Below are positions 21,574-39,395 of a stretch of DNA of 64,000 bases, one piece after another; within the stretch, counting starts at the first letter, position 1; the number at the start of each line of letters is the position of its first letter. The notes under the pieces are model-generated. The model worked only from the letters and a program-made list of their open reading frames with translations. It did no database searches and was not told the origin of the DNA. The stretch lies in assembly GCF_002007645.1 (NCBI RefSeq), contig NZ_CP019791.1, positions 868,001 through 932,000 of the forward strand. Direction: 5' to 3'. Source of the stretch: Anaerohalosphaera lusitana (GTDB lineage Bacteria > Planctomycetota > Phycisphaerae > Sedimentisphaerales > Anaerohalosphaeraceae). Both the position numbers and the translations under genes were made by a program.

Positions 21574-21601
21574 ATTTTACATTTTTCCCTTGCAAATTCA
21601 A
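21574..21601 (-). promoter_or_regulatory. Putative cas9 promoter
   Basis: On the minus strand TTGAAT (21596-21601), 16 bp, TAAAAT (21574-21579), about 38 bp before the cas9 ATG. It overlaps the divergent tracrRNA promoter, so the two may interfere with or co-regulate each other. Confidence 0.5.
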
Positions 21602-21618
21602 GCAATATCCGGTTTAAT
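21590..21618 (+). promoter_or_regulatory. tracrRNA promoter
   Basis: TTGCAA (21590-21595), exactly 17 bp, TTTAAT (21613-21618). The expected start, 7 nt further, is 21625, which is the first base of the anti-repeat. Confidence 0.7.
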
Positions 21619-21624
21619 ACCAAT

Positions 21625-21743
21625 AGTGTAATTAATCTCGGCCTGCTTCTTTTCATAACAAGAGAAAAGTCGAAGGCAGCCCGCTCCGGCGGGCGCTCTG
21701 CGGAGCAACCTAAAGCGCATCCCTTCGGGGAGGCGCTTTTTTT
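21625..21743 (+). ncRNA. tracrRNA
   Basis: Trans-activating crRNA for Cas9, about 119 nt. Bases 21625-21659 are the anti-repeat: 21 of the first 23 match the reverse complement of the CRISPR repeat, then a short mismatch, then CATAAC against CACAAC. This predicts a duplex with one internal bulge. The tail has a hairpin GCCCGCTCCGGCGGGC and a GCTCTGC motif reminiscent of Neisseria-type II-C tracrRNAs. It ends in a terminator AAAGCGC...GCGCTTT with a CCCTTCGGGG cap and a run of T. It is divergent from cas9. Confidence 0.92.
21712..21743 (+). terminator. tracrRNA terminator
   Basis: Arms AAAGCGC (21712-21718) and GCGCTTT (21733-21739) with an inner CCC-TTCG-GGG, then T7. Confidence 0.9.
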
Positions 21744-21868
21744 GTTTCATCACGCAAAATGATCCAACCGCCCACCTAGCACTCATAACTAAACACGAAA
21801 AAACAAAAAAATACACACCGACTCCAAAACACTTCATCCCAAAAAATCCCAAACCCCTACCCCGTGTT

Positions 21869-21887
21869 GATCATGATTCTCATTATT
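21869..21887 (-). promoter_or_regulatory. Fur-box-like sequence
   Basis: On the minus strand AATAATGAGAATCATGATC matches the classical 19-bp Fur box at 16 positions. No iron gene is adjacent, and the nearest minus-strand start is cas9, ~330 bp away. Confidence 0.35.
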
Positions 21888-21912
21888 GATAAAACAGCCC
21901 TCCAGCCCTTTT

Positions 21913-21944
21913 CTTCGTGCTCCTTCGTGCCCTTCGTGGTAAAA
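21913..21944. repeat. Short repeat, CTTCGTG type, copy 2
   Basis: Near-identical to 15934-15966: repeated CTTCGTG units followed by GGTAAAA. Confidence 0.7.
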
Positions 21945-21994
21945 ACTGTCTTTAAAAAATCTCCCACTTGACAGGTAGGAAACAGCCTGTCAGC

Positions 21995-22068
21995 TTTTGC
22001 CCACTTTTACCCCATTTTTACCCCACCTATATACCACTTTTGCTCGTTTTTACCCTACTTTTGCCCCC
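21995..22068. repeat. Phased T-tract array (TTTT[A/G]CCC units)
   Basis: TTTTGCCC or TTTTACCC units start at 21995, 22005, 22016, 22038, 22048 and 22059, with a degenerate TATATACC at 22028. All are 10-11 bp apart. An extra copy lies near 22134. T-tracts in phase with the helix predict intrinsically curved DNA. Confidence 0.75.
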
Positions 22069-22570
22069 TCAAAATCACCCGAAATCAGCCGATTTCACCC
22101 AATGTCCTATTTACCAGGTGTCCACTCTCGGCACTTTTACCCAAATCCGAAGGAGGAAAACACCCATTTTTCAAGAGCGAAATACCCACAGTTTCCCAGC
22201 CGACCCCCATTTCAACCCGCCTCACTGGGCAATATCCCCCACAAGCCCAAAACCGCCCCAAACTGCATACTGATCCAGCCCGAAACACATCCAAAAGATC
22301 AAAACGCACCAAACCAGTCTACATATTTCCACACCATAACCCCGCACAAAATGACAGTATCTGCCCCTCAAATATACTTACACCCCCATTTCGACCGCAA
22401 AACGCAACCAAACGCGACACAAAACACCACCCAGGCGAGCACCACAGCAGCCCAACTGCCCTGATCCGCCCAAAAAAAACACGACAGCCCGATAACTCAC
22501 CGATTTTCAGCCCTGTTTCCCGATTTTTTGCTGTTCAAACCGCATTTATGCCGACATAATCCTTGAAGAC

Positions 22571-23803
22571 ATGCTGAAAATCGCTCCCTCCAGCCGAATA
22601 TCGTTCTATATCGAAGTGGTCGTGCTCATTCTCATGGCCACAGGCACCGCCTTCGTATTCTCAGCGGGCGCTAACCTCAGTTCAGAGCTGGACTTATCTC
22701 AATTCTACAAATTCACTACACTAAAGCAGATACTCTTTTTCCCCCTCGCCGTCGCGGTAATGTACACGGCCTCATACATCGATTATCGCCGCTTCAGCTT
22801 CACCCGCGCAGGCGCCTGGCGGTCATTCACTCCATATCTGTTAATCCTTGCTATAGCACTACTTACGTTAGTTCTAATCCCCGGCATAGGCGTCGAACGC
22901 AACTACTCCCGCCGCTGGCTGGAGCTGCCGTTGGGCCCCGCAGCCGTCAGTTTTCAGCCCTCGGAACTGGCAAAATGGGCAGTCGTATTCTTCTTTGCAG
23001 CCTTCCTGGACCGCTATCGCGACAGTATGAGTCTGTATTTCAAACGCTTCGTCCCGCTCTGTGTTGTAGCGGGTATCGTCTGTGCTCTGATCGTGACGCA
23101 AGACTTTGGCACAGCAGCACTTATAGCACTTCTTGCATTCCTGATGCTGCTGGCCGGCCGAGCGAAATGGTGGCATTTTCTCACCCCCTTACCCGTTGTT
23201 GTGCCCATGTTCACATACGCGATCATGAGCTCACCCACCCGTATCAACCGCATAACGCGGTTTCTGGACCCTGACCAGATGTATCATCAGGCCAGGCAGT
23301 CTCTGATCGCCATAAGTACCGGCGGCATATGGGGTAAGGGTTTCGGTCGCGGCATTTTCAAGTACGGCCACCTGCCCGAAGACACCACCGATTTCATCTT
23401 CGCGGTCATCTGCGAGGAGATGGGATTCGTCGGCGGCGTGTGCATCATCCTGCTTTTCGCGCTGCTGCTGGTGCTGGGAATCATTCTGGTATGCCGCTGT
23501 AAGTGCCTGTTCGGTAAGCTCTTAGCGACCGGTATCATTCTTAGCATCACCATACAGGCCGCACTGAATATCGGTGTCGTAACCGTAGTTTTGCCCACCA
23601 AGGGCATCCCGCTGCCTTTCATCAGCGCGGGCGGTACCAGCATGCTGCTGACCGCTGCGATGGTGGGCGTGCTGCTGAACATCGCACGACAAACCTCTGC
23701 CGGGGAAAGACTTACGTCAGATTCCGCTCTGGCCGACAGGTCCTGGGTCACCACCCAAAAGAGCGTTGGCAATGCTGAAAACGGGGTTTTGTGTGATGGC
23801 TGA
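22571..23803 (+). CDS. ftsW: Cell division protein FtsW (SEDS glycosyltransferase)
   Basis: Polytopic SEDS-family peptidoglycan polymerase of the divisome. It is 410 aa with about ten membrane segments. Family segments include RRWLELPLGPAAVSFQPSELAKWAVVFFFA (~115-145), TQDFGTAALI, ISTGGIWGKGFGRG, LPEDTTDFIFAVICEEMGFVGG and VLPTKGIPLPFISAGGTSM. It is called FtsW rather than RodA because it overlaps murG by 8 nt, the usual dcw arrangement. The ribosome site is weak. The rest of the dcw cluster is not adjacent, although murD is at 46 kb. Confidence 0.92.
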   Translation: MLKIAPSSRISFYIEVVVLILMATGTAFVFSAGANLSSELDLSQFYKFTTLKQILFFPLAVAVMYTASYIDYRRFSFTRAGAWRSFTPYLLILAIALLTLVLIPGIGVERNYSRRWLELPLGPAAVSFQPSELAKWAVVFFFAAFLDRYRDSMSLYFKRFVPLCVVAGIVCALIVTQDFGTAALIALLAFLMLLAGRAKWWHFLTPLPVVVPMFTYAIMSSPTRINRITRFLDPDQMYHQARQSLIAISTGGIWGKGFGRGIFKYGHLPEDTTDFIFAVICEEMGFVGGVCIILLFALLLVLGIILVCRCKCLFGKLLATGIILSITIQAALNIGVVTVVLPTKGIPLPFISAGGTSMLLTAAMVGVLLNIARQTSAGERLTSDSALADRSWVTTQKSVGNAENGVLCDG

Positions 23804-25058
23804 GGGGGATGTCAGGCACTATTTCTTCGCGGGCGGCGGTACTGGCGGGCATATCTATCCCGCTCTGGCGGTGGCGCAGCAGCTTGCGAAGATCGATCCT
23901 GACGCGAAAATACATTTCTTTTGCAGTACCCGAGATATCGATGCGCAAATCCTTTCTAAATCAGGGTTTAGCTATACGCCGGTGGAGGCCCGGGGGTTGT
24001 CGTCACGGCCCGTTGATATGGCGAAATTCGTGGTTTCGCTGGTAAAGGGTCGCAAATTCGCGACGTGCCAGCTTAGGTCCGTGCGCGAGAATTCGGTTGT
24101 GATCGGTGTAGGCGGATTCGCTTCTGCGCCGGTAGTGCTTGCTGCTAAAGGACTTAGCATTCCCGTGGTGATGCTCAATACCGACCTTGTGCCGGGCAAG
24201 GCAAACCGTTTTCTGGCCAGGTATGCCCAGCGGATATTCGTTCAGTTCGAAGATTCCGCAAAATATTTTAAGACCAATGCCACAATAGAAGTAACCGGCT
24301 GTCCGCTTCGTGAGGAATTGCTGGAGGCGTGCGGCGCACATCGCAGGCAGAACTCATCGCACACATCGCAGGGGAGTAATGCGGGTGCGGACGCGAAGGA
24401 TCAGCAGGGCGGCGATACGTCTCGTGGACATGGTCCACCCTACATAAACGACTATAAGAAAAGGGCTTATGAGAAGTTCGGGCTGGATGCGGGCAAGAAG
24501 ACTTTGCTTATTACGGGGGCTTCGAGCGGGTGCGTGAATATCAATAAGGCTATGTCGCGGATACTGTATCGGCTGGGAAAATTTGCGGACGAGTGGCAGA
24601 TCGTGCACCTGGCGGGGCGCGCAAACTATGATGAGGTAAGGGGTTACTACGAAAATGAGCCGCTGGAATGTAAGGTGCTGGACTACTGCGATGAGATGGG
24701 GGAGCTGTATGCTGCGGCGGATCTGCTGGTGGGTCGGGCCGGCGCGGTGAGTGTGGCTGAGTACGCGGCGTGCGGGGTTCCGGCGGTGTGTCTGCCTTAT
24801 CCGTATCATAAGGACAAGCACCAGTATTTAAATGCGCAGAAACTGGTGGACGCGGGCGCGGCAGTTATAGTTGATGATCGGCCCGATGATAATATAAAAA
24901 CGGCTGATGAACTTTTTATACAGCTTGAAAAGCTGATGAGTGATTATAAACTTCGTGAGCAGATGGGGGAGGACTCTATAAAAATAGCTAGGCCGGATGC
25001 TAGTCTTAAAATCGCAGACTGTGTTGCCGATATATTAAAAACGCTTTGTAAAAAGTAG
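23796..25058 (+). CDS. murG: UDP-GlcNAc--undecaprenyl-pyrophosphoryl-MurNAc-pentapeptide GlcNAc transferase
   Basis: Makes lipid II from lipid I at the inner face of the membrane. It is 420 aa, longer than the usual ~355. The N-terminal glycine loop GGGTGGHIYPALAVAQQL and the C-terminal GRAGAVSVAEYAACGVPAVCLPYP...DKHQYLNAQKLVDAGAA are intact. The excess length is a ~40-residue polar insertion after CPLREELLEACG (DNA about 24331-24445) between the two Rossmann domains. It holds a perfect DNA palindrome and is discussed as a finding. ATG 23796 is chosen over TTG 23766 and ATG 23772 because family proteins start just before the glycine loop. Confidence 0.93.
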   Translation: MAEGDVRHYFFAGGGTGGHIYPALAVAQQLAKIDPDAKIHFFCSTRDIDAQILSKSGFSYTPVEARGLSSRPVDMAKFVVSLVKGRKFATCQLRSVRENSVVIGVGGFASAPVVLAAKGLSIPVVMLNTDLVPGKANRFLARYAQRIFVQFEDSAKYFKTNATIEVTGCPLREELLEACGAHRRQNSSHTSQGSNAGADAKDQQGGDTSRGHGPPYINDYKKRAYEKFGLDAGKKTLLITGASSGCVNINKAMSRILYRLGKFADEWQIVHLAGRANYDEVRGYYENEPLECKVLDYCDEMGELYAAADLLVGRAGAVSVAEYAACGVPAVCLPYPYHKDKHQYLNAQKLVDAGAAVIVDDRPDDNIKTADELFIQLEKLMSDYKLREQMGEDSIKIARPDASLKIADCVADILKTLCKK

Positions 25059-25097
25059 TTTTAAACTTCTACTTTTAATGTTGCTCGGTTTTTTAAT

Positions 25098-25283
25098 AAG
25101 GAATCGCTTCGCGATGCTGTTTTATGCTGGGTCCGTCAAAGGCTGATGACAAGGAGGACTGTTCTATGTCGGCTCCCTGGTCAAGCCCTGGATGATAACG
25201 CGTGAGGGATGCGTTTGCGAGACGGGCCAGCTTTGTTGTACGGTTGAGATTGCCGCGTCGCCTTCGGCTCCTCGCAATGACAA
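25098..25283 (+). repeat. Composite dispersed repeat cluster
   Basis: Plus orientation, directly after murG. Type C (GAATCGCTTCGCGATGCTG, TTTTATGCTGGGTCCG), then AAGCCCTGGATGATAACGCG and type A (GAGATTGCCGCGTCGCC...CTCGCAATGACA). It fills the gap between convergent murG and the minus-strand membrane gene. Confidence 0.85.
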
Positions 25284-25324
25284 AATTAGTTGGGCCGTCG
25301 CGTCGGGTTGGTTCGGATATGTTG

Positions 25325-26563
25325 CTAATCGGCTGTTGTGTTTGTCGGGGTAGCGGTTGGTTTTTGGGGTTTGTCTTTTATGATCGCGATGGGGCCTTTG
25401 CCGTGGGTTATTTTGGCGAGTTGTTTTTTGTTGGGGTCGTAGATGCAGATCTGGTCGCCTCTTAGATACTTGAGGTTGAAGGGGTAGATGCCGAGTTGGA
25501 AAAGGGCCTTGTCCGTGGGGAGGTGGGTTGCGTTTTTTGGTAGCCAGCCGCCGAAGGGTGTGGTGAAGGCGACTCTTTCGCTTTGCTCGGTTTTTGTGTT
25601 CTTTGCGGTGAGGCCCATGAGGGACCAGATGCTTGTTTTAAATTTCCAAGGGCTGGACTGGGCTGGTCCGAGTTTCGGGACATCTGTCGGGCTGAACCAA
25701 TAGCGTGTGCGGTACTCTTCGAGGTCATGTTCGAGGTCGCGTTCGGTCGGGGCGGCGGTTTTTGTGAATGACTCGGCGATGAGTATAGTTTCTGAGTCGC
25801 GGTAGTCCTTGTCGGACGTGATGCATGCATAGAGGTCATAGGTGCCGTCGTTGTTTTCTGAGTGGCGGACGAAGAGGTAGTCGCCGTAGCCTTTGGAGTT
25901 GAGGTCGAAGGTTTTGGAGGGTGCGGCATCCGCGGTGAGTGAACGAGAGTATACATCGCCGTCATCAGAGGATATATAATACATAGTGACGTGCTGGGGG
26001 AGGGACATTTCGGATAAATCCACGATCTGGTTATCGGTATAAAGGTTTGCAGTTGAGGTGAGTGAATACCAGCCGAAGATTATAAAATGTGATATTGTTT
26101 GAACGATGAGCGTGCCCTTGAGGGAGCGGGGGAGCCAGCGGGGTTTGCGCCAGAAGCTGAGGGCGACGAAGGGGTATTCGAGCAAAAGCGTGAGAATGTA
26201 GGTGAGGGCGACCATTTTCCAGAAGTAGGGCCAGACCTGCGAGAGGCCGAGTGACTGGGTGGGTATTAAATCGTATATTATAAAAACGCCTGCCCAGGCG
26301 GAGAGATAGTTGGCCAGTATCATGAGGATGACGGCGAGGTTCTTTTTGGTTTTGAAAAAATGGACGAGCAGGAGGCCTTCGAAGATGCCCAGGAAAAGAT
26401 TACCGAAGAACAGGTGGAGGAAGCTGGACCACATGAGCGGTGTGCCGGAGTTTGCGTGGGCGGTGGAGGTTATGGCGAGGATGAGGGCTACTGGGAGGAT
26501 GGTCTGTTTTCTGCTCGTGATGGTGATCTTGGTGAGCTTGCGAGTATTGTTTTGTTCAGGCAT
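25325..26563 (-). CDS. Multi-pass membrane protein of unknown function
   Basis: 412 aa from the ATG at 26563, which overlaps the preceding small gene by 8 nt (ATGCCTGA). Upstream in-frame starts exist. The N-terminus may be a signal peptide ending STAHA. Then come four or five membrane helices (GNLFLGIFEGLLLVHFF, VILMILANYLSAWAGVFIIYDL, MVALTYILTLLLEYPFVALSFW, GTLIVQTISHFIIFGWYSL) and a ~220-residue soluble part rich in Asp, Ser and Thr, with a Pro/Thr-rich tail. I do not recognise a family. The sense strand is C/A-rich (many ACC, CCA, ACA codons), reflecting strand skew. Confidence 0.6.
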   Translation of the reverse strand: MPEQNNTRKLTKITITSRKQTILPVALILAITSTAHANSGTPLMWSSFLHLFFGNLFLGIFEGLLLVHFFKTKKNLAVILMILANYLSAWAGVFIIYDLIPTQSLGLSQVWPYFWKMVALTYILTLLLEYPFVALSFWRKPRWLPRSLKGTLIVQTISHFIIFGWYSLTSTANLYTDNQIVDLSEMSLPQHVTMYYISSDDGDVYSRSLTADAAPSKTFDLNSKGYGDYLFVRHSENNDGTYDLYACITSDKDYRDSETILIAESFTKTAAPTERDLEHDLEEYRTRYWFSPTDVPKLGPAQSSPWKFKTSIWSLMGLTAKNTKTEQSERVAFTTPFGGWLPKNATHLPTDKALFQLGIYPFNLKYLRGDQICIYDPNKKQLAKITHGKGPIAIIKDKPQKPTATPTNTTAD

Positions 26564-26846
26564 TTGTTGACTCTGGGTTTTGCGGGTGGTTTTCATTTAA
26601 ATTTTGCGGTTGCAGGGTTTGTTTGATGCCAGCGGCGGCTCCTATCAGGATCATTGTGATTCCGCCGAGGATGCAGGCTGTATCTGCGTATTCGGGCATA
26701 GGTGCTGAAATGCGAACGTTAATGTCCTTTTTAAGCTGGGTCGCTGACTGTGATACCAGGTGTGTGACCAAGTCGTTGTGGATATAGGGAACTGTGATAA
26801 GAAAAGTGCCGCAGATTATGAGAGTGACGGCGATGGATGATTTCAT
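26556..26846 (-). CDS. Small two-helix membrane protein, unknown
   Basis: 96 aa from the ATG at 26846, preceded by CGAGGAGAAAAT. Two hydrophobic segments (SIAVTLIICGTFLITVPYI and YADTACILGGITMILIGAAAG) flank a ~30-residue polar loop. The tail is Asn/Pro-rich. It overlaps the following membrane gene by 8 nt, so the two are probably co-translated. No family recognised. Confidence 0.6.
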   Translation of the reverse strand: MKSSIAVTLIICGTFLITVPYIHNDLVTHLVSQSATQLKKDINVRISAPMPEYADTACILGGITMILIGAAAGIKQTLQPQNLNENHPQNPESTNA

Positions 26847-26988
26847 ATTTTCTCCTCGTTTGAGTTTTGTTGTAGTGGATGCAATATAGCTTTTGTGTGT
26901 CGTGGTTGTCAAGGTTTTTTGGTGTTTTCATCACAAAACGCGAAGGTCATGAAGGGTGAGAAGGGGAAAGAAGTTTTCTTGTTATGGG

Positions 26989-27835
26989 TGAGCCAGCTTT
27001 ATTGAGCGTTTGAGATCGCCACGTCGCTTCGCTCCTCGCGATGACAGGTTTTTACGTTTTTGCGTCATGGTTTTTGTGCAGGGCGGGTAGGGTTGTGGCT
27101 GTTTTGTACGTGCATGCGTGCTCGTTTTGTTCTCATGGTCCGCCTGGGGCGGACGGCAGGCGTTGGGTTAATGTGGCTTAGGACGAGCTAGCTTTATTGT
27201 ACGGTTGAGATCGCCACGTCGTCTTCGGCTCCTCGCGATGACAGGTTTTTACGTTTTTGCGTCATGGTTTTTGTGCGGGGCGGGTAGGGTTGTGGGTGTA
27301 TTGGACGTGCATGCTCGCTCGTTTTGTTCTCTGGGTACGTCTGGGGCAGATGGCAGGCGTTGGGTTAATGTGGCTTAGGACGAGCCAGCGTTATTGAACG
27401 TTTGAGATCGCCACGTCGCTTCGCTCCTCGCGATGACAGGTTTTTACGTTTTTGCGACATGGTCGTTATATAGGATGGGCAGGCTTGTGGTTGCTTTGGG
27501 CGTGCATGCGCACTCGTTTTGTTCTCTTGGTCCGCCTGCGGCGGATGACAGGAGTCGGGTTAATGTGGCTTAGGACGAGCTAGCTTTATTGTACGGTTGA
27601 GATCGCCACGGCGCCTTCGGCTTCTCGCGATGACAGGTTTTTACGTTTTTGCGACATGGTCGTTCTGCGGGGTGGGTAGGCTTGTGGCTGCTTTGGGCGT
27701 GCATGCGCACTCGTTGTGTTCTCTTGGTCCGCCTGCGGCGGATGACAGGGGTCGGGTTAATGTGGCTTAGGACGAGCTATCTTTATTGTACGGTTGAGAT
27801 CGCCACGGCGCCTTCGGCTTCTCGCGATAACAGAA
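26989..27835 (+). repeat. Tandem array of a ~196-bp repeat unit
   Basis: TGAGATCGCC recurs at 27011, 27206, 27403, 27598 and 27795, giving periods of 195, 197, 195 and 197 bp. Each unit contains a type A palindrome, CAGGTTTTTACGTTTTTGCG, a GTGCATGCG segment, a type B GGTCCGCCTGCGGCGGATGA and GTTAATGTGGCTTAGGACGA. The array lies in the 1.4-kb gap between the divergent small membrane gene and proS. No gene was seen there. Confidence 0.9.
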
Positions 27836-27974
27836 CCGGGGGGGGCTCGCGTTTTTTTGACTTTATGCTTTTGGTGAGCGTGCTGCTGTTATTGCGTTAG
27901 TTTGCGGTTTGTGTTGTGTTCTATGGGCCTGTCTGAGTGGGATGATAACGGATGAGTTATGCGTTTGAGGGAGT

Positions 27975-28030
27975 AGCCAGCTTTATTGGATGTTTGGGAT
28001 CGCCACGTCGCTTCGCTCCTCGCGATGACA
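27975..28030 (+). repeat. Dispersed repeat, single type A copy
   Basis: AGCCAGCTTTATTGG...GATCGCCACGTCGCTTCGCT...GATGACA, plus orientation, outside the tandem array and 200 bp before proS. Confidence 0.8.
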
Positions 28031-28232
28031 AAAGGGAAAAGAGGGGGTCGGTTTGTTGTGGTTTTGGGGGCTGGATGTGGGAGTATTGGCTTGCAAATGC
28101 GGGGTTTTGGGGCTATATTCTGGGTTTGTATGTCGTTTCGGCGGCAGGGTTTAGTTTTTCGTTTATATAGTATTGAATCTATGTTCGGGGCCGGGTTATT
28201 GCGGTCCGTTTTTGATTTTGCAAGGAGAATTC

Positions 28233-29978
28233 ATGCGTTACAGCAAGGCACTTATACCTACGGTCAAGGAAACACCTTCGGATGCGGAGATAGTCAGTCA
28301 TCAGTTGATGCTGCGGGCGGGGCTGATGCGGAAGATCGCGAGCGGGACGTATATGTATCTGCCAGCGGGTATGCGGGTGCTTAACAAGGTGATGAATATC
28401 GTGCGGGAGGAGATGGACAGGTCCGGGGCGCAGGAGAGTCTTGCGCCGTGTGTGCATCCGATCGAGCTGTGGCAGCAGACGGGTCGGGACGTGGATTACG
28501 GTGAGACGCTGGGGACGTTTACGGATCGGCACGGGCGGGGGAACGTGCTGGCGCCGACGGCTGAGGAGGCGTTTACGTTTCTGGGAGCGAGCGAGATCAA
28601 TTCGTACAAGCAGTTGCCGTTGAATCTGTATCAGATCAGCTTTAAGTATCGCGATGAGTTTCGGCCGAGGTTCGGTGTGCTGCGGTCGCGTGAGTTTATC
28701 ATGAAGGATGCGTACAGTTTTCATCCGGACGATGAGTGTCTGCAGAAGACGTATATGGAAATGTATGATGCGTATTGCAGGATATTTGAGCGGGCGGGCG
28801 TGGATTATGTGATCGTCGAGGCGGAGACGGGTGAGATGGGCGGAAGCGGGTCGCATCAGTTTACCGTGCCCTGTGAGAACGGCGAGGATGTGATCGTTTA
28901 TACGGAAGAAGGCGGGCGGGCGTGGAACATCGAGAAGGCGCCGGTCGATCCCCCTGTGAAGGTTGAGGCGGTAGATGTGGGTGCGATGGAGGATGTGCAT
29001 ACGCCGGGCGTTGGGACGATCGAGGAGGTTTGCAGGTTCTTGAAGACGCAGGCGAGCGAGATGATCAAGACGCTGATACTGAAGACGGCGGAGGGGGAAG
29101 TCGTGGGCGTTCTGCTGCGGGGCGATCATGAGCTGAACGACGAGAAGATCACGCAGTTGCTGGGCGGGGTCGGTTATGAGATGGCGGACGATGCGACGGT
29201 GTTCGATGTGACGGGTGCGGCGGTTGGGTTTGCAGGGCCGGTGGGACTGGCTGAGAACGTGAGCCGGGTGTTCGTGGATCCGGGGGTTGCTGCGATGGGC
29301 GCGGGGATCAGCGGTGCGAACAAGACTGACTATCATGTGAAGAATGTTGTGCCGGGGCGCGACTTTGCGATCGAGGGCGAGAAGGTACAGGTTGCGGATG
29401 TGCGGAACGCGGTTGAGGGTGATACGTATGACGGTAAGCCTTTGAAGTTCAAACGTGGGATCGAGGTTGGGCAGGTGTTCAAGCTGGGCACGAAATACAG
29501 CGAGAAGCTCGGGGCGAAGTTCCTGGATGCGGACGGGGTTGAGAAGCCTTGCCTGATGGGATGCTATGGTATTGGGATCAACAGGATCATGGCGAGTGCG
29601 ATCGAGCTGGGCAATGACGATAACGGGATCATCTGGCCGATCAGTATCGCGCCGTGGGAGGTGATCATTACGCTGGCCGGTGCGACGGACGAGATCGTGG
29701 AAGCGGGCGAGAAGCTGTATAACGAGTTGACGGCGGCGGGGGTTGAGGTGCTGCTGGATGATCGTGATGTGCGTGCGGGCGTGAAGTTCAAGGATGCGGA
29801 TCTGCTGGGGATACCGGTGCGGGTGACGATCGGGAAGAAGAGCCTGGCGGATGGTAAGGTCGAGATGAAGCTGCGGACGGCGAGTGAGCGTGAGGATATG
29901 GAGCTGGACAAGGCGAGCGAGGAGGTTGCTGGGCTGGTGAAGACGATGAAGGCTGAGCTGGCGGAGGGGAAGGAGTAG
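28233..29978 (+). CDS. proS: Prolyl-tRNA synthetase, bacterial type
   Basis: Charges tRNA-Pro. It is 581 aa from the ATG at 28233, which has an AGGAG site. The frame is open 60 nt upstream, but family proteins begin MRYSK. Class II motifs are present (FRPRFGVLRSREFIMKDAYSFH as motif 2), a YbaK-like editing insertion occupies about residues 220-400, and the C-terminal anticodon-binding domain (PWEVIITLAGA...GVEVLLDDRDVRAGVKFKDADLLGIPVRVTIG) is complete. Confidence 0.96.
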   Translation: MRYSKALIPTVKETPSDAEIVSHQLMLRAGLMRKIASGTYMYLPAGMRVLNKVMNIVREEMDRSGAQESLAPCVHPIELWQQTGRDVDYGETLGTFTDRHGRGNVLAPTAEEAFTFLGASEINSYKQLPLNLYQISFKYRDEFRPRFGVLRSREFIMKDAYSFHPDDECLQKTYMEMYDAYCRIFERAGVDYVIVEAETGEMGGSGSHQFTVPCENGEDVIVYTEEGGRAWNIEKAPVDPPVKVEAVDVGAMEDVHTPGVGTIEEVCRFLKTQASEMIKTLILKTAEGEVVGVLLRGDHELNDEKITQLLGGVGYEMADDATVFDVTGAAVGFAGPVGLAENVSRVFVDPGVAAMGAGISGANKTDYHVKNVVPGRDFAIEGEKVQVADVRNAVEGDTYDGKPLKFKRGIEVGQVFKLGTKYSEKLGAKFLDADGVEKPCLMGCYGIGINRIMASAIELGNDDNGIIWPISIAPWEVIITLAGATDEIVEAGEKLYNELTAAGVEVLLDDRDVRAGVKFKDADLLGIPVRVTIGKKSLADGKVEMKLRTASEREDMELDKASEEVAGLVKTMKAELAEGKE

Positions 29979-30000
29979 GTTGGTTAGGATGCGGGGGGGG

Positions 30001-30401
30001 GACTCGCAAGGAGTCGCTTCGCGACAGCTATTTTATGCTGGGTCCCGGGTCAAGCCCGGGATGACAACATGGGTCGCCGCTCGCGTTTTTTGCGCCATGG
30101 TTGTTTTGCTGGGCGCGTTAGCGGGATGCTGTTGAGAGCGTGCATGCGTGCTAGTGATGTTCTCTGGGTCCGCCTGCGGCGGATGGCGGGCGTCGGGTTG
30201 GTGCTCGCGTTTTGTTTTTGGCTGCATGCGTTTGGTTAGCGTGCTGTTGTTATCGAATTCGTTTTGCGGTTGGCGTTACGTTCTCTGGATCCCAAATCAA
30301 GTTTGGGATGACAGACTTTGCGCTATGCGGTTGACGTTTTAAAATATGAAGTCGCTTTGCGAGGGCTGTTTTATGCTGGGTCCGCCTTCGGCGGATGACA
30401 G
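30001..30401 (+). repeat. Composite dispersed repeat cluster
   Basis: Plus orientation after proS. Type C (GACTCGCAAGGAGTCGCTTC), a CCCGGGTCAAGCCCGGGATG unit, the CGCCATGGTTG...GTGCATGCGTGC segment, type B (GGTCCGCCTGCGGCGGATGG), then further C/B copies up to the DUF4416 gene. This fills nearly all of the 431-bp gap. Confidence 0.85.
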
Positions 30402-30409
30402 TTTTTTGA

Positions 30410-30991
30410 GTGATGCTGTTGTTTTTTGCAGGTGAGAGATTGTGGGAAGTTGGTCGGCCTGAGCCGGTAAAGTTGATAGTTGGGATATTGGGGGCGGATG
30501 AGGAGTGTCTGCGCTTTGCGCGGGAGCGGGTGGAGGACGAGTTCGGGGAGCTGGATTTTGTGAGCGAGGTGTGGGCGTTCGATCAGACGCGATATTATGA
30601 GGACGAGCTGGGGGAGCGGCCTTTGCGGCAGTTCGTTAGTGTGGGTGAGCTGGTCGATCCGGGGAGGCTTGCGGGGATAAAGCATGCGGCGAACGATATG
30701 GAGCGGGAGCTGGCGGATGAGGTCGGGGGTGAGCTGGGGCGGCCTGTGAATCTGGATCCGGGGTACTTGGAGCCGGCGAAGCTGGTGCTGGCGTCGACGA
30801 AGAATTTTGCGCATCGGATTTATATCGGCGAGGGGATGTATGCGGAGATTACGCTGGGGTATCGGCGAGGTGAGTGGCTGGGGTTTGAGTACAGTTTTCC
30901 GGATTACAAGGGCGGGCGGTATCATGCGTTTTTGAGCAAGGTGCGTGCTCGGCTGGTGGAGCAGTTGCGGGAGATGCGGCGCGGTGGGTGA
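30410..30991 (+). CDS. DUF4416 family protein
   Basis: 193 aa. It shows the family's conserved run: PVKLIVGILGADEE, VWAFDQTRYYEDELG, RQFVSVGELVDPGRLAGIKHAAN, VNLDPGYLEPAKLVLASTKNFAHRIYIGEGMYAEITLGY and FPDYKGGRYHAFLSKVR. The function of the family is unknown to me. The start is uncertain: ATG 30410 abuts a repeat element and lacks a ribosome site, and TTG ~30440 is an alternative beginning closer to the conserved PVKL. A repeat cluster follows. Confidence 0.82.
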   Translation: MMLLFFAGERLWEVGRPEPVKLIVGILGADEECLRFARERVEDEFGELDFVSEVWAFDQTRYYEDELGERPLRQFVSVGELVDPGRLAGIKHAANDMERELADEVGGELGRPVNLDPGYLEPAKLVLASTKNFAHRIYIGEGMYAEITLGYRRGEWLGFEYSFPDYKGGRYHAFLSKVRARLVEQLREMRRGG

Positions 30992-31020
30992 GGCGTAATG
31001 TTTTGCGGCTGGCGTTTTGT

Positions 31021-31391
31021 GGGGACTCGCGGCTGGGTCGCCGCTCGCGTTTTTTGGGCGTGCTTGTGGGTGATTGGCGTGGTATATTGGGGGTGGAGTG
31101 TTGCGGCTGGCGTTGCGTGGGGACTCGTGTGGAGTCGCTTCGCGACGGTTTTTTTATGCTGGGTCCCGGATCGGGGTCCGGGATGACAACCTGAGTCGAC
31201 GCTCGCGTTTTTTGGCGTGCATGTGTTTTGGGGGCGTGGTATATAGGTGTGTGTGATGCTGCGGCTGGCGTTGCGTTCTCTGGGTCCGTCTTCGGCGGAT
31301 GACAGGTGTAGAAGGTTTATGCGTTGGACGGTCCGTGGAAAGTCGTCGGCTTTGAGATCACCACGTCGCCTTCGGCTCCTCGCGATGACAG
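31021..31391 (+). repeat. Composite dispersed repeat cluster
   Basis: Plus orientation between the DUF4416 gene and the wecA-like gene. Two type C units with GTCGCCGCTCGCGTTTTTTG, a CCCGGATCGGGGTCCGGGAT unit, type B and a terminal type A (GATCACCACGTCGCCTTCGG...GCGATGACA). It fills most of the 482-bp gap. Confidence 0.85.
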
Positions 31392-31473
31392 AGAATGGAG
31401 TGGTCGATTTGGGCCGTCATGTATGGTTGCATTAGTTACATAATAGACAGTTGAATAAGTCTGGGAGGCCGAA

Positions 31474-32577
31474 TTGGCTACTGTTATCGTTGGGATAGTT
31501 GTTGGTGTTTGCGGGTTTTTGGTGTCGGCTGGGGGGACTGTGCTGGTGCGGCGTGGTGCGGTGCGGCGGGATTTTGTTGCTCGGCCTGTGGCGGATCGTT
31601 ATCATCGGACGATCATTCCGCTGGGGGGAGGGATCGCGATATTCTGGACGATGGCGCTGCTGCTGGGAGGTGGGCTGGCGGTTACGGCTTGGGCGGAGGT
31701 GCTTGGGCTGGAGAAAATTTTGGGTGAGGGGTTGATGGTGCATCGGGAAGGGTTTCTGGATACGGCTGGGGTGCTGGGCGTCGTGCTGGGATGTGCGGCG
31801 GTGCTGCATGTGATGGGGCTGGTGGATGACGTGAAGGGTTTGGGCTGGGGAGTGAAGCTGGGGGTGCAGTTTGCGGCGGCGTTTGCGGCGGCGTATTTTG
31901 GTGATGTGCGGGTAGAGCTGTTTATCGAGAGCAGGGTCGTGACGGCGGGGCTGAGTGCGTTCTGGATCGTGCTGATAATCAACGCGTTCAATTTCCTGGA
32001 CAACATGGACGGGCTGAGTGCGGGGATCGCGTTTATCGCGACGGGTGTGCTGCTGGTGGCGGCGGTGTATTCGGAGCAGTTTTTTGTGGGGGCGCTGGCG
32101 ATAGCGTTTATGGGGGCGCTTGGCGGGTTTTTATGGCACAACTTTCCGCCTGCGAAGATATTCATGGGGGATGCGGGGTCGCTGGTGGTTGGATTTTTCG
32201 TGGCGACGCTGACGCTGAAGACGACTTATTATCACGAGGAGACGGGGGGCGGACTGTATGCGGTGTTTATGCCGTTGGTGGTTATGGCGGTTCCTTTGTA
32301 TGATTTTATAAGCGTGACGGTGCTGCGGATAAGCCAGGGAAAGAGTCCGTTTGTTGGTGATACGCAGCATTTTTCGCATCGGCTGAAGAGACGGGGGTTG
32401 AGCGATGTGCAGACGGCTGGTACGCTGTACCTGGCGACGCTGTGCACGGGAATCGGCGCGATATTTTTGTGGCAGGTGGATATTGCGGGGGCGGTGCTGA
32501 TATTCGCGCAGACGGTGATGATACTGGCTATAATCGCGATCATGGAAGCGACGGGAAAAGGAAACGCTGAGGGATAG
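31474..32577 (+). CDS. Undecaprenyl-phosphate sugar-1-phosphate transferase (WecA/TagO/MraY superfamily)
   Basis: Polytopic enzyme that loads a sugar-1-phosphate onto undecaprenyl phosphate to begin a surface glycan. It is 367 aa with about ten membrane helices. Catalytic signatures: GLVDDVKGLGW (D118, D119), NAFNFLDNMDGLSAG (D176, D179), FMGDAGSL and a late HFSHRL. The lack of MraY-specific sequences and the neighbouring O-antigen ligase gene suggest the WecA/TagO branch. The start is TTG, supported by GGGAGG 6 nt upstream. The next gene follows after 2 nt. Confidence 0.88.
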   Translation: MATVIVGIVVGVCGFLVSAGGTVLVRRGAVRRDFVARPVADRYHRTIIPLGGGIAIFWTMALLLGGGLAVTAWAEVLGLEKILGEGLMVHREGFLDTAGVLGVVLGCAAVLHVMGLVDDVKGLGWGVKLGVQFAAAFAAAYFGDVRVELFIESRVVTAGLSAFWIVLIINAFNFLDNMDGLSAGIAFIATGVLLVAAVYSEQFFVGALAIAFMGALGGFLWHNFPPAKIFMGDAGSLVVGFFVATLTLKTTYYHEETGGGLYAVFMPLVVMAVPLYDFISVTVLRISQGKSPFVGDTQHFSHRLKRRGLSDVQTAGTLYLATLCTGIGAIFLWQVDIAGAVLIFAQTVMILAIIAIMEATGKGNAEG

Positions 32578-32579
32578 AC

Positions 32580-34862
32580 ATGACGAAAGCGGCGGTGAAG
32601 AAACGGTTAGAGATCGAGCAAACAGGCGGCGGGCTGAAGGCGGTCGAGTGGGTGGTGATGGCGTGTTTTGCGGCGGTTGTGGGGGTTCGGGGGACGATCG
32701 TGGAGAGTCCGCATATTCGGCAACTCGATCCGGCGAACATAGTGGGGAACGAGGGGGCGAGTCTGATCATATCGGCGGTGGTTCTGTGCGGGGTTGCAGT
32801 CTGGGTGTTCGGTGTTTGGATGCGCGGGTTGCGGGGGTATCGGCTGACTGGTATGGAAGCGGGGGTTGGATTGTTCGTGCTGGCTGGGTTGGCTGCGACG
32901 GCGGCGGCGTCGGATAAGCGAGCGTCGATGACGGATGTGATCACGGTGGTGTGTCCGATGCTTGCGGCGATGGTGCTGGTGCAGGTGATGGATCGCGGGT
33001 CGAAGGTGCGGGTGATGCTGTGGGTGCTGGTTGCGGTGGGGTTCGTGAATGCGTATCAGTGCGCGGATCAGTGGATGAGCAGCAATGAGATGATGATCGA
33101 GCAGTACGAGGAGAATCCGCAGGTGCAGTTGGAGAAGCTGGGGATCGAGGAGGGGACGCTGGAGCAGTGGCAGTATGAGCATCGGCTGTACAGTAAGGAT
33201 GTGAAGGGTTTTTTTACGACGGGCAATTCGGCGGGAGCGTTTTTTCTGATGGCAATCGCGGGGGTTGGGACGCTGGCGATGGCTGGTGCGGGTAAGGAGG
33301 ATCGGCTGCGTGTGCCTGTGTATGCGGTACTTGTGGTTGCGTTGGCTGGGGGGCTGGTGCTGACGCAGAGTAAGGGGGCGATAGGCGGGACGCTGATAGC
33401 GGGATTTCTGGCGGCGGTCGGGTATAAGATGGGCGGTCGGCTGAGGAAGTATCGGGGTTTGATCGCGGCGATGGTTGCGGTTGCGGTGTTGGTCGGTGCG
33501 GGTGTGATCACGTGGTACGGGATGGAGCATGGGCGGCTGCCGGGCGGGAACAGTATGCTGGTGCGATGGCAGTACTGGGTCGGAGCTGCGCGGATGTATG
33601 CGGAGCATGCGTGGGTCGGCGTGGGCGGTGGAAATTTTTCGGATTACTATACGCATTACAAGATAGCGGCGGCGCCGGAGACGGTGAAGGATCCGCACAA
33701 CTTTTTGCTGAGTCTGCTGACGCAGTACGGGCCGGTGGGGATGATCGGTTTTGCGGCGGCGGTGCTGGGGCCGATGTGGATGGTGACGGGGAGACGCGAG
33801 CAGGCGGGCGAGAGGAAGAGCAAGTGGGCGTTGAGTTTGCGGGGTGCGGCCGTGCTGGGCGGTGTTGTTGCAGTGGTGCTGCTGTCGATTCGGCCCGCGG
33901 TGTTGAGTATAGAGGGTGCTCGGAATTTGGGGGAACTTTTGTATGGGATCGTGTATCTGCATTTGCTGCCGGTGATGTTTTTTGCGATCGGATTTTTGAT
34001 GCTTTGGGCGGGAGCGTACAAGGGCGGATGGGATAAGGAGGGGAAGCGGTTGAGCGGGCTGTTGATGTGGTGCGCGATCGCGGGGGTGTTGGCGCATAAT
34101 CTGATCGACTTTGCGATATTTGAGCCTGGGGTGGCAATGGCGATGTGGGTATTGGTTGCGTGTATGGTGAGTGTGTGGAGGATGGATGCGGCGGGGAAGG
34201 AATGGCGGATGCCGGGGCGAGGGCGGAGCAGGTTCGTGGTTGGCGGTGCTGCGTTCGTGGTGTTCGTTGCGGTGATGATTGTGGGTGTGGTCTGGCCGGT
34301 GCGTGCGGGTATGACGGTGCAGGAGGCGCTGCGGAGGCCGAGGCAGACACTGGGGCTGCTGGAGCGGGCGAGCGAGATGGATGTGCTCAGCGGGCGTGCG
34401 GCGAATGTGGCTGGGCGGGCGAGTCTGCAGTACAGTAAGAATGCACCGAATGAAGAGATCGAGCGGCGGCTGGTGGGGAACGCGATTGCGAGTTTCGAGG
34501 AGGCGACCGAGCGGACGCCGGCGAGCTACAAGAATTATAACGGGCTTGCGGAGGCGTATCTGCGGATGGGGCAGATCGATGAGAATGCGAGCGAGGAGTG
34601 GCAGCGGAAGGCGTATGAGGCGATGGAGGATGTGCTGGCGCGGTATCCTGGTTCGGGGGAGTATCAGCTTCGGGCGGGAAAGATCGCGGATGAACTTGGG
34701 ATGGAGGAGCAGGCGGTGGAGCATTACGCGAAGGCGGTGCGGATCGAGGATGCGTATCGTGAGCAGTTTCGGGTGATGTATCCGGGGCAGGAGATATTCA
34801 GTCGGCTGGGTGATGAGGGGTACGAGTTGGCGAAAAGGCGGGTAAGGGAGTTGTGCGAGTAG
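32580..34862 (+). CDS. O-antigen ligase/polymerase-like membrane protein with C-terminal TPR region
   Basis: 760 aa. The first ~560 residues hold about a dozen hydrophobic helices with O-antigen ligase (Wzy_C) features: FFTTGNSAGAFFLMAIAGVGTL, LTQSKGAIGGTLIAGF, VGVGGGNFSDYYTHYK and PHNFLLSLLTQYGPVGMIGF. The C-terminal ~200 residues are soluble and TPR-like (SFEEATERTPASYKNYNGLAEAYLRMG). The family joins or polymerises lipid-linked glycans at the periplasmic face. The coupled wecA-like gene supports a role in surface polysaccharide synthesis. The substrate is unknown. Confidence 0.82.
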   Translation: MTKAAVKKRLEIEQTGGGLKAVEWVVMACFAAVVGVRGTIVESPHIRQLDPANIVGNEGASLIISAVVLCGVAVWVFGVWMRGLRGYRLTGMEAGVGLFVLAGLAATAAASDKRASMTDVITVVCPMLAAMVLVQVMDRGSKVRVMLWVLVAVGFVNAYQCADQWMSSNEMMIEQYEENPQVQLEKLGIEEGTLEQWQYEHRLYSKDVKGFFTTGNSAGAFFLMAIAGVGTLAMAGAGKEDRLRVPVYAVLVVALAGGLVLTQSKGAIGGTLIAGFLAAVGYKMGGRLRKYRGLIAAMVAVAVLVGAGVITWYGMEHGRLPGGNSMLVRWQYWVGAARMYAEHAWVGVGGGNFSDYYTHYKIAAAPETVKDPHNFLLSLLTQYGPVGMIGFAAAVLGPMWMVTGRREQAGERKSKWALSLRGAAVLGGVVAVVLLSIRPAVLSIEGARNLGELLYGIVYLHLLPVMFFAIGFLMLWAGAYKGGWDKEGKRLSGLLMWCAIAGVLAHNLIDFAIFEPGVAMAMWVLVACMVSVWRMDAAGKEWRMPGRGRSRFVVGGAAFVVFVAVMIVGVVWPVRAGMTVQEALRRPRQTLGLLERASEMDVLSGRAANVAGRASLQYSKNAPNEEIERRLVGNAIASFEEATERTPASYKNYNGLAEAYLRMGQIDENASEEWQRKAYEAMEDVLARYPGSGEYQLRAGKIADELGMEEQAVEHYAKAVRIEDAYREQFRVMYPGQEIFSRLGDEGYELAKRRVRELCE

Positions 34863-34950
34863 GTTGTCGCGGATGGCAATTGGGCGAGCTTTGTGTTATA
34901 ATGGTTGGAAGCTATTTCAAAGCTCAGAGTTGTTTTAGCGGGGAATTATT

Positions 34951-36360
34951 ATGGATAGAAGGCAATTTATAAAATCGAGCGGGCTTGTGGCGGGAGCGGC
35001 TTTGCAGGGTTCAGTTTTTGCGGCAGCATCGAGGCCGGATAAGAAGCGGCCGAACTTTTTGATGATCACCTGCCATGATCTCGGGCAGCATCTTGGCTGC
35101 TACGGTATTAAGGAAGTAGAGTCGCCGAATATCGATCGGCTGGCGAGCAGGGGCGTTCGGTTTGCGAATATGTTTTCGACTTCGGCGGTGTGTTCGCCGG
35201 CTCGGGGTGCGCTTCATACGGGCCGATATCCGCAGACGAACGGTCTGATGGGGCTGACGCATGCGCCGTGGTGGTGGAAGTTCAAAAATGGTGAGACACA
35301 TGCTGCACAGATGTTCAGGAAGGCTGGGTATGATACGTGTCTGTGCGGATTGCAGCATATATTCGGGGCGGGCGAAGCGGGGAGATATGGCTATGATAAA
35401 GTGCTGGGCAGGAAAAAAGGTGCTGAAGAAACGGTTCAGGTGTCCAGCGAGTTTCTGGTAAATCGAAAGGCAGATGACAGTCCGTTCTTTTTGAAGGTTG
35501 GTTTTTTTGAGGTGCATCGGCGAGGAGGATCGTTCAAACATCGCGAGTATGATCCGGCCAAGCCGGTACATGTGCCGGGATATCTTGCGGATACGCCGGT
35601 GATGCGTGAAGATCTCGGGCGTTTCCAGGAAGAGATACGATATTTTGATTCGTGTGTAGGGCGTATACTCGATTCGCTCCAAAAGAGTCAATGTGCAGAG
35701 AATACGATCGTCGTGTTTACGTCGGATCATGGGATTCCGTATCCGGGTGCTAAGTGGACGATCCGGGATGCTGGTATCGAGGTTCCTTTGATAATGTATA
35801 TGCCGGGCGGGGCTTTGTCGGGCGGTAAAGTATGCGATGCAATGATCAGTCATGTGGATGTACTGCCGACGTTGCTGGACATGGCGGAAATCGATAAGCC
35901 TGCGAATCTCGAGGGGGTGAGCTTTGCGGACTACCTGGCTGGGCGCAGCGATGCTAAGCCGCGAGAAGAGATATTCGCGCAGTTTACGCCGGCTATGTTT
36001 CGGGACAATGAGTCTCGGTGTGTACGGACCGAAAAGTATAAGTTAGTACGATTTTTCTCGGCGGGTAGGTGCGTGAAATACCCGATCGATGTTGACCCGG
36101 TGAGGTATGCAATGCATAAGGAGCGGGCGGCGACGAACTGGAAGCCGAGGCCGTTTGTACAGCTTTTCGATGTGCAGAATGACCCGGATGAGCTCAATGA
36201 CATCGGGGGTGAGAAGGGTAATGCCGAGATAGTGAGGGATATGTCACGCAAGCTTTATGCGTGGATGAAGGCGGTGGACGATCCTATTTTGAAGGGTCCG
36301 ATGGAGTCGCCTTATTATCGTGATTCAATGGAAGACTTTGAAAATGCCGCTTCAGGATGA
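34951..36360 (+). CDS. Secreted sulfatase (formylglycine-dependent, Tat signal)
   Basis: 469 aa. The N-terminus MDRRQFIKSSGLVAGAALQG is a twin-arginine-type signal. The arylsulfatase signature is CSPARGALHTGRYP, with C81 as the residue converted to formylglycine and R85. PNFLMITCHDLGQHLGCYG supplies the metal Asp, and FTSDHGIPYPGAKWT the second metal pair. Such enzymes in planctomycetes usually desulfate polysaccharides, but the substrate is not predictable. No sulfatase-maturating enzyme is adjacent. It converges on yebC with a terminator between. Confidence 0.92.
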   Translation: MDRRQFIKSSGLVAGAALQGSVFAAASRPDKKRPNFLMITCHDLGQHLGCYGIKEVESPNIDRLASRGVRFANMFSTSAVCSPARGALHTGRYPQTNGLMGLTHAPWWWKFKNGETHAAQMFRKAGYDTCLCGLQHIFGAGEAGRYGYDKVLGRKKGAEETVQVSSEFLVNRKADDSPFFLKVGFFEVHRRGGSFKHREYDPAKPVHVPGYLADTPVMREDLGRFQEEIRYFDSCVGRILDSLQKSQCAENTIVVFTSDHGIPYPGAKWTIRDAGIEVPLIMYMPGGALSGGKVCDAMISHVDVLPTLLDMAEIDKPANLEGVSFADYLAGRSDAKPREEIFAQFTPAMFRDNESRCVRTEKYKLVRFFSAGRCVKYPIDVDPVRYAMHKERAATNWKPRPFVQLFDVQNDPDELNDIGGEKGNAEIVRDMSRKLYAWMKAVDDPILKGPMESPYYRDSMEDFENAASG

Positions 36361-36395
36361 CAGCGGCAGTTTGAATATCACCTAAAGAATCATAA

Positions 36396-36430
36396 AAGGG
36401 CAAGGCCGTGGTTGCGGTCTTGCCCTTTGG
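36396..36430. terminator. Bidirectional terminator between sulfatase and yebC
   Basis: Near-perfect hairpin AAAGGGCAAGGCCG / CGGTCTTGCCCTTT. It is followed by TTTT on the minus strand. It lies between the two convergent stops. Confidence 0.8.
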
Positions 36431-36458
36431 TTCGACTGGTATCGAGTTTTGAGTTTTG

Positions 36459-37211: not shown

Positions 37212-37231
37212 AGTTTTCAACCCTTACAGTT

Positions 37232-38107: not shown

Positions 38108-38128
38108 AATATGTTCCTTTCTTCTTTT

Positions 38129-38929: not shown

Positions 38930-38948
38930 TTTTCGCACTGCCTAAAAA

Positions 38949-39356
38949 CTATTGGGGGTCGGTGCTTTCATCTTCGGGGGCGTTGAGTTCGTCTTCTTCT
39001 TTGAACTCTTTTGCGGCCTCTTCGATGACCTTAAGTGTTTCAATTGCGCCTTTGATCTTGATGTCTCGGTGGAACCGGAGTTCGGGGGTGAATCGTGTTG
39101 TGAGTTTGTCGCTGAGGAGCCTGCGGATGTGTGCTGCGGCGCCTCTGATGGCCTTGAAGGCCTTATTTGAGACCTGCTCATCTTCGGACATGATGCTTAG
39201 GTAGACTTCGGCTGTGCGCAGGTCGGGTGCGACATCAGTCTGTGTGACGGATATGATGATGCCTTCGATGCGAGGGTCGCTGAGGCGGTTCTGGATCGCG
39301 TCGGCGACGACCTCTTTGATTATGCGATTTATTTTTTCCTGTCTGCGTGTGGGCAT
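38949..39356 (-). CDS. rbfA: Ribosome-binding factor A
   Basis: Late 30S maturation factor, 135 aa. It has the KH-like fold, with RRQEKINRIIKEVVADAIQNRLSDPRIEGIIISVTQTDVAPDLRTAEVYLSIM and an acidic tail. It follows infB, as in many bacteria, with a 94-bp gap that holds a short dispersed motif. Confidence 0.95.
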   Translation of the reverse strand: MPTRRQEKINRIIKEVVADAIQNRLSDPRIEGIIISVTQTDVAPDLRTAEVYLSIMSEDEQVSNKAFKAIRGAAAHIRRLLSDKLTTRFTPELRFHRDIKIKGAIETLKVIEEAAKEFKEEDELNAPEDESTDPQ

Positions 39357-39395
39357 TCTGCTGTACCTTTATATGATCCGATAGCAGAGAGAGTT

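What the first reader, a model, noticed from the sequence alone, without database searches (positions are those of the whole stretch)
21600..23900. Putative replication origin: GC skew, gene direction and repeat orientation all flip here
Hand counts on single 60-base lines show the plus strand strongly C-rich before the region (line 22441: 25 C, 8 G) and G-rich after it (line 24721: 30 G, 13 C). The change is not due to gene strand: minus-strand genes at 13 kb are C-rich on the plus strand, while minus-strand genes at 26 kb and 40 kb are G-rich. All genes from 1 to 21.5 kb point left, and most from 22.5 kb point right. All four dispersed repeat loci to the left are in minus orientation and all those to the right in plus. 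The gene-free 21.74-22.57 kb stretch has a phased T-tract array and one DnaA-box-like 9-mer. No dnaA, dnaN or gyr gene is nearby, so this would be an unlinked origin.
Basis: partly seen in the sequence, partly recalled or inferred. Interest (0 to 1): 0.66.

Follow-up and report, generated by a model that had tools for sequence, protein, structure and literature searches.

The report
Bacterial chromosome with many origin-like sites
The strand-composition switch in this window is real, but it is one of about 25 such switches around a single bacterial chromosome, most of them marked by the same helically spaced T-tract DNA array, which suggests this bacterium copies its chromosome from many start points as archaea and eukaryotes do, something not known in bacteria.

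Summary
The skew flip is real (cumulative minimum at 23,320; flat zone 22,571-23,803) and is independent of gene strand. It is not the chromosome's only origin-like switch. Over 67% of the 4.25-Mb chromosome (Sedimentisphaerales, probably Anaerohalosphaeraceae), GC skew forms a saw-tooth. Sharp upward jumps decay over about 80-100 kb on each side, with about 25 local minima. Third-codon-position skew follows the local domain, not the gene strand. The orientation of dispersed repeats follows it too (126 of 131 counts).

The gene-free stretch beside the window's jump holds a new element: an array of about seven T-tract units spaced 10.5 bp apart (21,993-22,069), with an inverted repeat and a conserved block. 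The chromosome has 27 such arrays (E<1e-3), most of them 0.3-5 kb to a fixed side of an upward jump, and better arrays have bigger jumps. Array positions alone predict skew at r=0.60 (rotation null maximum 0.25). The best single-origin model explains 8% of the variance, and it too picks this locus.

Best reading: the arrays are replication origins of an unknown type, used in parallel on one bacterial chromosome. Function is inferred, not shown. No initiator was identified, and no relative checked shows an equivalent set of arrays.

The parts
21993..22069 (+). Phased T-tract (iteron-like) array: units of NSTTTTRCCC-type sequence spaced 10-11 bp; the proposed origin determinant
   Evidence: Chromosome profile match 889993-890069, E 1.1e-14; mean T-tract spacing over 17 arrays 10.52 bp, n=88; alignment A2
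21968..21992 (+). Inverted repeat TTGACAGGTAGGAAACAGCCTGTCA directly beside the array
   Evidence: Conserved in the nine aligned copies, this one included; coordinates
22100..22124 (+). Conserved block CAATGTCCTATTTACCAGGTGTCCA downstream of the array
   Evidence: Alignment of nine copies; coordinates
21764..22422 (+). Extent of the dispersed non-coding element that contains the array; ten further sizeable copies on the chromosome at 75-89% identity
   Evidence: Whole-genome BLAST; local BLAST
22571..23803 (.). Transition zone of near-zero skew in which the polarity changes (cumulative minimum at 23320); coincides with ftsW
   Evidence: 100-bp counts and cumulative skew; FtsW Pfam PF01098
1..22570 (.). 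Left arm, C-rich on the plus strand (skew about -0.3), proposed to be copied by leftward forks
23804..64000 (.). Right arm, G-rich on the plus strand (+0.1 to +0.45) for genes of both strands, proposed to be copied by rightward forks; positive skew continues to about window position 127000 (chromosome 995 kb)

Best explanation
The gene-free stretch beside ftsW holds one of about 27 replication-origin elements spread over one bacterial chromosome. Each element is an array of about seven T-tract units spaced at the DNA helical repeat (10.5 bp), all on one face of the helix. I infer that a trans-acting initiator (not identified) binds or bends this array and opens DNA 0.3-5 kb to its downstream side (3' of the T-rich strand). 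Two forks leave from there and meet forks from neighbouring arrays at variable positions. Many arrays are used in parallel, with efficiencies that follow array quality, and they act on top of a weaker chromosome-wide polarity (origin side near 0.9 Mb, terminus side near 2.75 Mb). Shown here: the saw-tooth skew, its independence from gene strand, the arrays, and their position, orientation and dose relation. Inferred: that the polarity is fork direction, that arrays cause it, and the existence of an initiator.
For: Saw-tooth skew with sharp rises and slow declines: 18 upward against 4 downward jumps of at least 0.25 over 6+6 kb. Skew follows the domain and not the gene strand: R2 0.44 against 5e-6 over 1,663 genes; the plus-gene fraction rises from 0.31 to 0.64 with domain skew. 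Independent polarity marker: dispersed-repeat orientation agrees with skew sign in 25/25, 38/40, 29/30 and 34/36 cases for four families. Every evaluable BLAST copy of the window element lies at an upward jump. 27 arrays at E<1e-3, several found in stretches whose sequence had not been read but where a jump was already inferred (154, 369, 715 kb). 15 of 27 lie within 5 kb of a skew minimum (random 1.6, maximum 8) and none near a maximum. Array score against jump size: Spearman 0.81. Averaged profile: -0.25 rising to 0 over about 100 kb upstream, +0.22 falling to 0 over about 80-100 kb downstream. Array positions predict skew at r=0.60, rotation null maximum 0.25.
Against: Composition records fork direction over evolutionary time; no replication measurement exists here. 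No initiator was found, and DnaA boxes are hardly enriched near arrays (0.31 against 0.20 per kb). Three arrays show no jump (2555, 3234, 3267 kb), and the strong jump at 570 kb has no array. No order member tested shows a comparable array set; complete genomes G026 and G031 have none. Only 2.87 of 4.25 Mb could be read, and 3.28-4.25 Mb is sparse. Five arrays in the scan's training set were noticed partly because they lay at jumps, so those five are not independent.
Confidence: 0.68

Rival explanations
1. One ordinary unlinked origin at this locus; the other switches are noise or relics.
For: A free single-origin fit picks about 900 kb, with a terminus at 2,750 kb. The locus is one of the two deepest global minima.
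Against: That fit explains only 8% of skew variance. Around 25 minima of the same shape exist, with local decay over about 100 kb rather than over a whole chromosome arm.
Confidence: 0.06
2. The arrays are not routine origins but places where replication restarts or starts only under stress, or a set of origins used one after another in evolution (an origin that moves).
For: Some arrays are degenerate and have small or no jumps. Ten large copies look like a dispersed, possibly mobile element. The relation between array quality and jump size would also fit decay of older sites.
Against: Sequential single origins would give step changes that extend over whole arms, not saw-teeth that decay within about 100 kb. 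Arrays without any shared flank occur, some inside genes, which argues against simple copying.
Confidence: 0.16
3. The multiple flips are breakpoints of inversions in a chromosome that has one origin.
For: A few islands look like this, for example a plus-skew island at 1,331-1,342 kb with sharp edges on both sides and a sharp downward jump at 382.7 kb.
Against: Inversions make rises and falls equally sharp, but 18 rises against 4 falls are seen. Arrays sit at rises and never at falls, and on a fixed side.
Confidence: 0.06
4. Transcription-coupled strand bias from divergent gene clusters.
For: Genes tend to point away from jumps (plus fraction 0.31 to 0.64).
Against: Gene strand explains 5e-6 of the variance of third-position skew; genes on the minus strand in plus domains are as G-rich on the plus strand as the others. 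Intergenic DNA shows the same sign.
Confidence: 0.02

Closest known systems
Multiple-origin chromosomes of archaea (Sulfolobus, Haloferax) and eukaryotic skew N-domains
   Same: Several origin-like polarity switches on one chromosome; saw-tooth skew with upward jumps at initiation zones and gradual decline between them (concept as in PMC3269012, PMC3320577).
   Different: This is a bacterium with bacterial DnaA proteins; the number of switches (about 25 in 4.25 Mb) far exceeds the few origins of archaea; the marking motif is a 10.5-bp phased T-tract array, unlike archaeal origin-recognition boxes (the latter from general knowledge).
Classical bacterial oriC with DnaA boxes
   Same: Skew minimum, gene-free stretch, gene directions diverging.
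   Different: No DnaA box with 0-1 mismatch in 21,600-23,900, not linked to dnaA, many copies. The dnaA-linked boxes at the contig end lie at a local skew maximum.
Iteron origins of plasmids and of Vibrio chromosome 2
   Same: A tandem array of short units with an inverted repeat beside it, presumed to be read by a dedicated initiator.
   Different: Units follow the 10.5-bp helical repeat rather than the longer spacing usual for plasmid iterons (general knowledge); no Rep_3 initiator over cut-off on the chromosome; no match of the element in plasmid or phage records.
Vibrio cholerae strains with fused chromosomes and two functional origins (PMC6284228, PMC12219848)
   Same: More than one origin on a natural bacterial chromosome.
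   Different: Two origins of two different known types brought together by fusion, against about 25 sites marked by one repeated motif.

Membership tests
Classical DnaA-box oriC | Switch of GC skew from negative to positive | tested here: met
   Cumulative minimum at 23,320
Classical DnaA-box oriC | Cluster of DnaA boxes | tested here: not met
   None with 0-1 mismatch in 21,600-23,900; weak enrichment near arrays overall
Classical DnaA-box oriC | Linked to dnaA, dnaN or gyr | tested here: not met
   dnaA genes at 376 and 470,669; window at 868,001-932,000. dnaN and gyr were not searched across the chromosome
Classical DnaA-box oriC | One per chromosome | tested here: not met
   About 25 local minima, 27 arrays
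Iteron origin (plasmid or chromosome 2 type) | Tandem array of a conserved short unit | tested here: met
   Alignment A2 and spacing
Iteron origin (plasmid or chromosome 2 type) | Dedicated Rep/RctB-type initiator encoded by the replicon | tested here: inconclusive
   Rep_3 (PF01051) below cut-off; other initiator families not searched
Multiple-origin chromosome | Several negative-to-positive polarity switches not explained by genes or inversions | tested here: met
Multiple-origin chromosome | A shared sequence motif at the switches | tested here: met
Multiple-origin chromosome | Replication starts at these sites in living cells | not testable with these tools
   Needs marker-frequency or fork-direction sequencing

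The most novel reading that the evidence does not exclude
A natural bacterial chromosome that is routinely copied from about 25 origins of one new type: a helically phased T-tract array read by an unknown initiator, with replicons averaging roughly 160 kb (array spacing).
Probability: 0.55. Interest if true: 0.96.

Novelty: categorically new. Interest (0 to 1): 0.88.

Why it matters
One origin per chromosome is treated as a rule for bacteria; a 2015 review states that no natural bacterial chromosome was known to use two functional origins (PMC4403523), and later exceptions are chromosome fusions with two (PMC6284228). A chromosome with about 25 motif-marked polarity switches would break the rule and provide a new initiation signal. 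It would also make the question of how a bacterium coordinates many origins directly testable in one organism. It gives a concrete motif with predicted sites and predicted efficiencies.

Tried and rejected
Transcription-coupled skew: rejected. Inversions as the general cause: rejected on the sharp-rise/slow-fall asymmetry and array positions, accepted for single islands such as 1,331-1,342 kb. DnaA-box clusters at arrays: not found. Plasmid Rep_3 initiator: not found. Origin of the element in phages, plasmids or viral contigs: no match. Second DnaA as a lineage-specific initiator: rejected as diagnostic, because two DnaA genes occur throughout the order. The element as a known RNA family: nothing above the gathering score. 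A second species with the same system: G105 has 19 weak array matches at E<=0.1, but G/T-run and A/C-run positions show no polarity domains there (about 31 runs where 33 are expected by chance, my own count). Shared 8-mers near arrays other than the array: nothing convincing after 50,000 tests. The shared piece CTTCGTGCTCCTTCGTGCCC (21,913-21,939) is widespread in relatives and not diagnostic. First DNA alignment (A1) had mixed strands and was discarded.
Full report
What was checked. The window is positions 868,001-932,000 of a single 4,250,973-base contig, 99.96% complete. By relatives it belongs to the order Sedimentisphaerales (Planctomycetota) and probably to the family Anaerohalosphaeraceae: the best FtsW relative in the genome collection, 69% identical, is an Anaerohalosphaeraceae MAG. 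Skew is about -0.3 on the left and +0.3 on the right. Minus-strand genes have plus-strand third-position skew -0.42 left of the switch and +0.54 right of it; intergenic DNA gives -0.31 and +0.24. The switch is therefore not a gene-strand effect. Two details fail: right of 22.5 kb the genes point right only until about 36 kb, and no DnaA box with 0-1 mismatch lies in the region.

The skew does not form two domains. It forms a saw-tooth: sharp rises from about -0.3 to +0.3 followed by slow declines. With 6-kb windows on each side there are 18 rises of at least 0.25 and 4 falls. An interpolated cumulative curve has 25 local minima, on top of a weak chromosome-scale V with minima near 421 and 890 kb and a maximum near 2,732 kb. 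The best free fit of one origin and one terminus places the origin at about 900 kb, which is this window, but explains only 8% of the variance.

It behaves like fork polarity. Over 1,663 predicted genes, third-position skew is explained by the skew of nearby intergenic DNA (R2 0.44) and not by gene strand (R2 5e-6). The share of plus-strand genes rises from 0.31 to 0.64 from the most negative to the most positive domains. The orientation of dispersed intergenic repeats, tested on four families from the window, agrees with the sign of local skew in 25/25, 38/40, 29/30 and 34/36 cases; the families overlap in part, so these are not four independent tests. GC and AT skew are anticorrelated (r=-0.48), which is the usual G- and T-rich leading strand.

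A motif at the switches. The gene-free stretch 21,602-22,570 has sizeable BLAST copies elsewhere on the chromosome in both orientations. Every copy that could be evaluated lies at an upward jump. The nine that were aligned share an inverted repeat (TTGACAGGTAGGAAACAGCCTGTCA), an array of T-tract units and a downstream block. Weaker matches share only the T-tract array, some of them inside genes (32, 830, 2392 and 2507 kb). T-tract starts are spaced 10.52 bp on average (n=88), the helical repeat of DNA. A three-unit pattern gives 28 matches on this chromosome against 6 for the reversed control, and no excess in 58 relatives. A profile made from 17 arrays finds 27 arrays at E<1e-3. Some of these fall in stretches that had not been read but where a jump had already been inferred: 154, 369 and 715 kb. 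Another, at 3,575 kb, falls in an unread gap between -0.28 on one side and +0.10 on the other.

How tightly arrays and switches are tied. Fifteen of 27 arrays lie within 5 kb of a cumulative-skew minimum (null mean 1.6, maximum 8 in 5,000 draws) and none within 7 kb of a maximum. Of the 17 arrays within 10 kb of a minimum, 15 have it 0.3-9 kb downstream of the T-rich strand. Array score and jump size correlate (Spearman 0.81, n=19). Averaged over 15 strong arrays, skew falls from 0 at about -100 kb in steps to -0.25 just before the array, passes zero at +1 to +3 kb, reaches +0.22 at 6-12 kb and returns to 0 at about 80-100 kb. A saw-tooth drawn from the 27 array positions alone, with no fitting to skew, correlates with 5-kb skew at r=0.60; 2,000 rotations of the array map reach at most 0.25 and random sites 0.28. 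Caveat: five arrays in the scanner's training set were picked partly because they lay at jumps. The BLAST copies and the later profile finds were not picked by skew.

Interpretation. A right-moving fork exposes the top strand as lagging template and a left-moving fork the bottom strand, so upward jumps are where forks diverge (established knowledge). Local decay over about 100 kb requires forks from neighbouring sites to meet in between, that is, parallel use; origins used one after another would leave steps that persist along whole arms (inference). The simplest model is that each array is an origin, its efficiency set by array quality, with DNA opened on the downstream side. Several steps are inferred: that an initiator protein reads the array, that phasing matters, and that firing occurs in ordinary growth. 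DnaA boxes are barely enriched near arrays. No plasmid-type Rep_3 protein is over cut-off. The dnaA-linked cluster of near-consensus boxes at the contig end sits at a local skew maximum. The initiator is open; either of the two DnaA proteins that nearly all order members carry could have taken a new specificity.

What does not fit. Arrays at 2,555, 3,234 and 3,267 kb show little or no jump. The jump at 570 kb has no array, that at 1,598 kb has only a very weak one at 1,605 kb (E 0.18), and that at 1,331 kb bounds an island that looks like an inversion. No relative tested has a comparable set of arrays. G105, from another family of the order, has 19 weak matches but no polarity domains by a run-based proxy. 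The proxy agrees with skew sign for 70 of 72 runs in the own genome.

Comparison and novelty. Archaea have a few origins per chromosome and eukaryotes many. Human skew N-domains show the same saw-tooth at a larger scale (PMC3320577). For bacteria, a 2015 review found no natural chromosome with two functional origins (PMC4403523), a 2012 review listed only ambiguous skew patterns (PMC3269012), and the confirmed later cases are fused Vibrio chromosomes with two (PMC6284228, PMC12219848). No paper on such a chromosome in this group was found in the held library. This is therefore not 'the unlinked origin' but one member of a motif-marked set of origin-like sites, which if functional has no known bacterial counterpart.

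Noticed in passing
16773-21747: A type II CRISPR-Cas locus ends at the array: cas9 18395-21601 (-), cas1 17506-18402 (-), cas2 17186-17536 (-), six 36-nt repeats at 16773-17138 with 66-nt period, and a tracrRNA candidate at 21625-21747 (+) with an anti-repeat and a terminator hairpin (fold z -3.3).
   Followed up: partly
21869-21893: Palindrome-like GATCATGATTCTCATTATTGATAAA, resembling a Fur box, is shared upstream of the array by several copies of the element.
   Followed up: no
L011 1-1407 and the end of L090 (contig ends): Near-consensus DnaA boxes (TAATCCACA, TTTTCCACA twice) lie within 350 bp upstream of dnaA, but the place is a local skew maximum, so the dnaA-linked site does not look like a used origin.
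   Followed up: partly
L001 1195-2514: A second full-length DnaA at chromosome 470.7 kb; most of the 59 genomes searched, across families of the order, have exactly two matches to the DnaA DNA-binding domain.
   Followed up: partly
12163-15925, 25221-31388, 45948-46057, 54739-55141: Dispersed intergenic repeats (for example GAGATCGCCACGTCGCTTCGCTCCTCGCGATGACA) have an orientation that follows local skew almost without exception across the chromosome, as if insertion or loss depended on fork direction.
   Followed up: yes
chromosome 32.2, 830, 2392 and 2507 kb (L011-L159 stretches): Some phased T-tract arrays lie inside predicted protein-coding genes, so array formation does not need the dispersed element.
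   Followed up: partly
L235: The ftsW locus of another Planctomycetota chromosome (CP070830.1) also has a strong local skew flip (+0.43 at 10.8 kb) with opposite flips nearby; it has at most two weak array matches.
   Followed up: partly
chromosome 382.7 kb, 1341 kb: A few sharp downward skew changes exist (0.55 and 0.35), which could be inversion edges or fixed termination sites.
   Followed up: no
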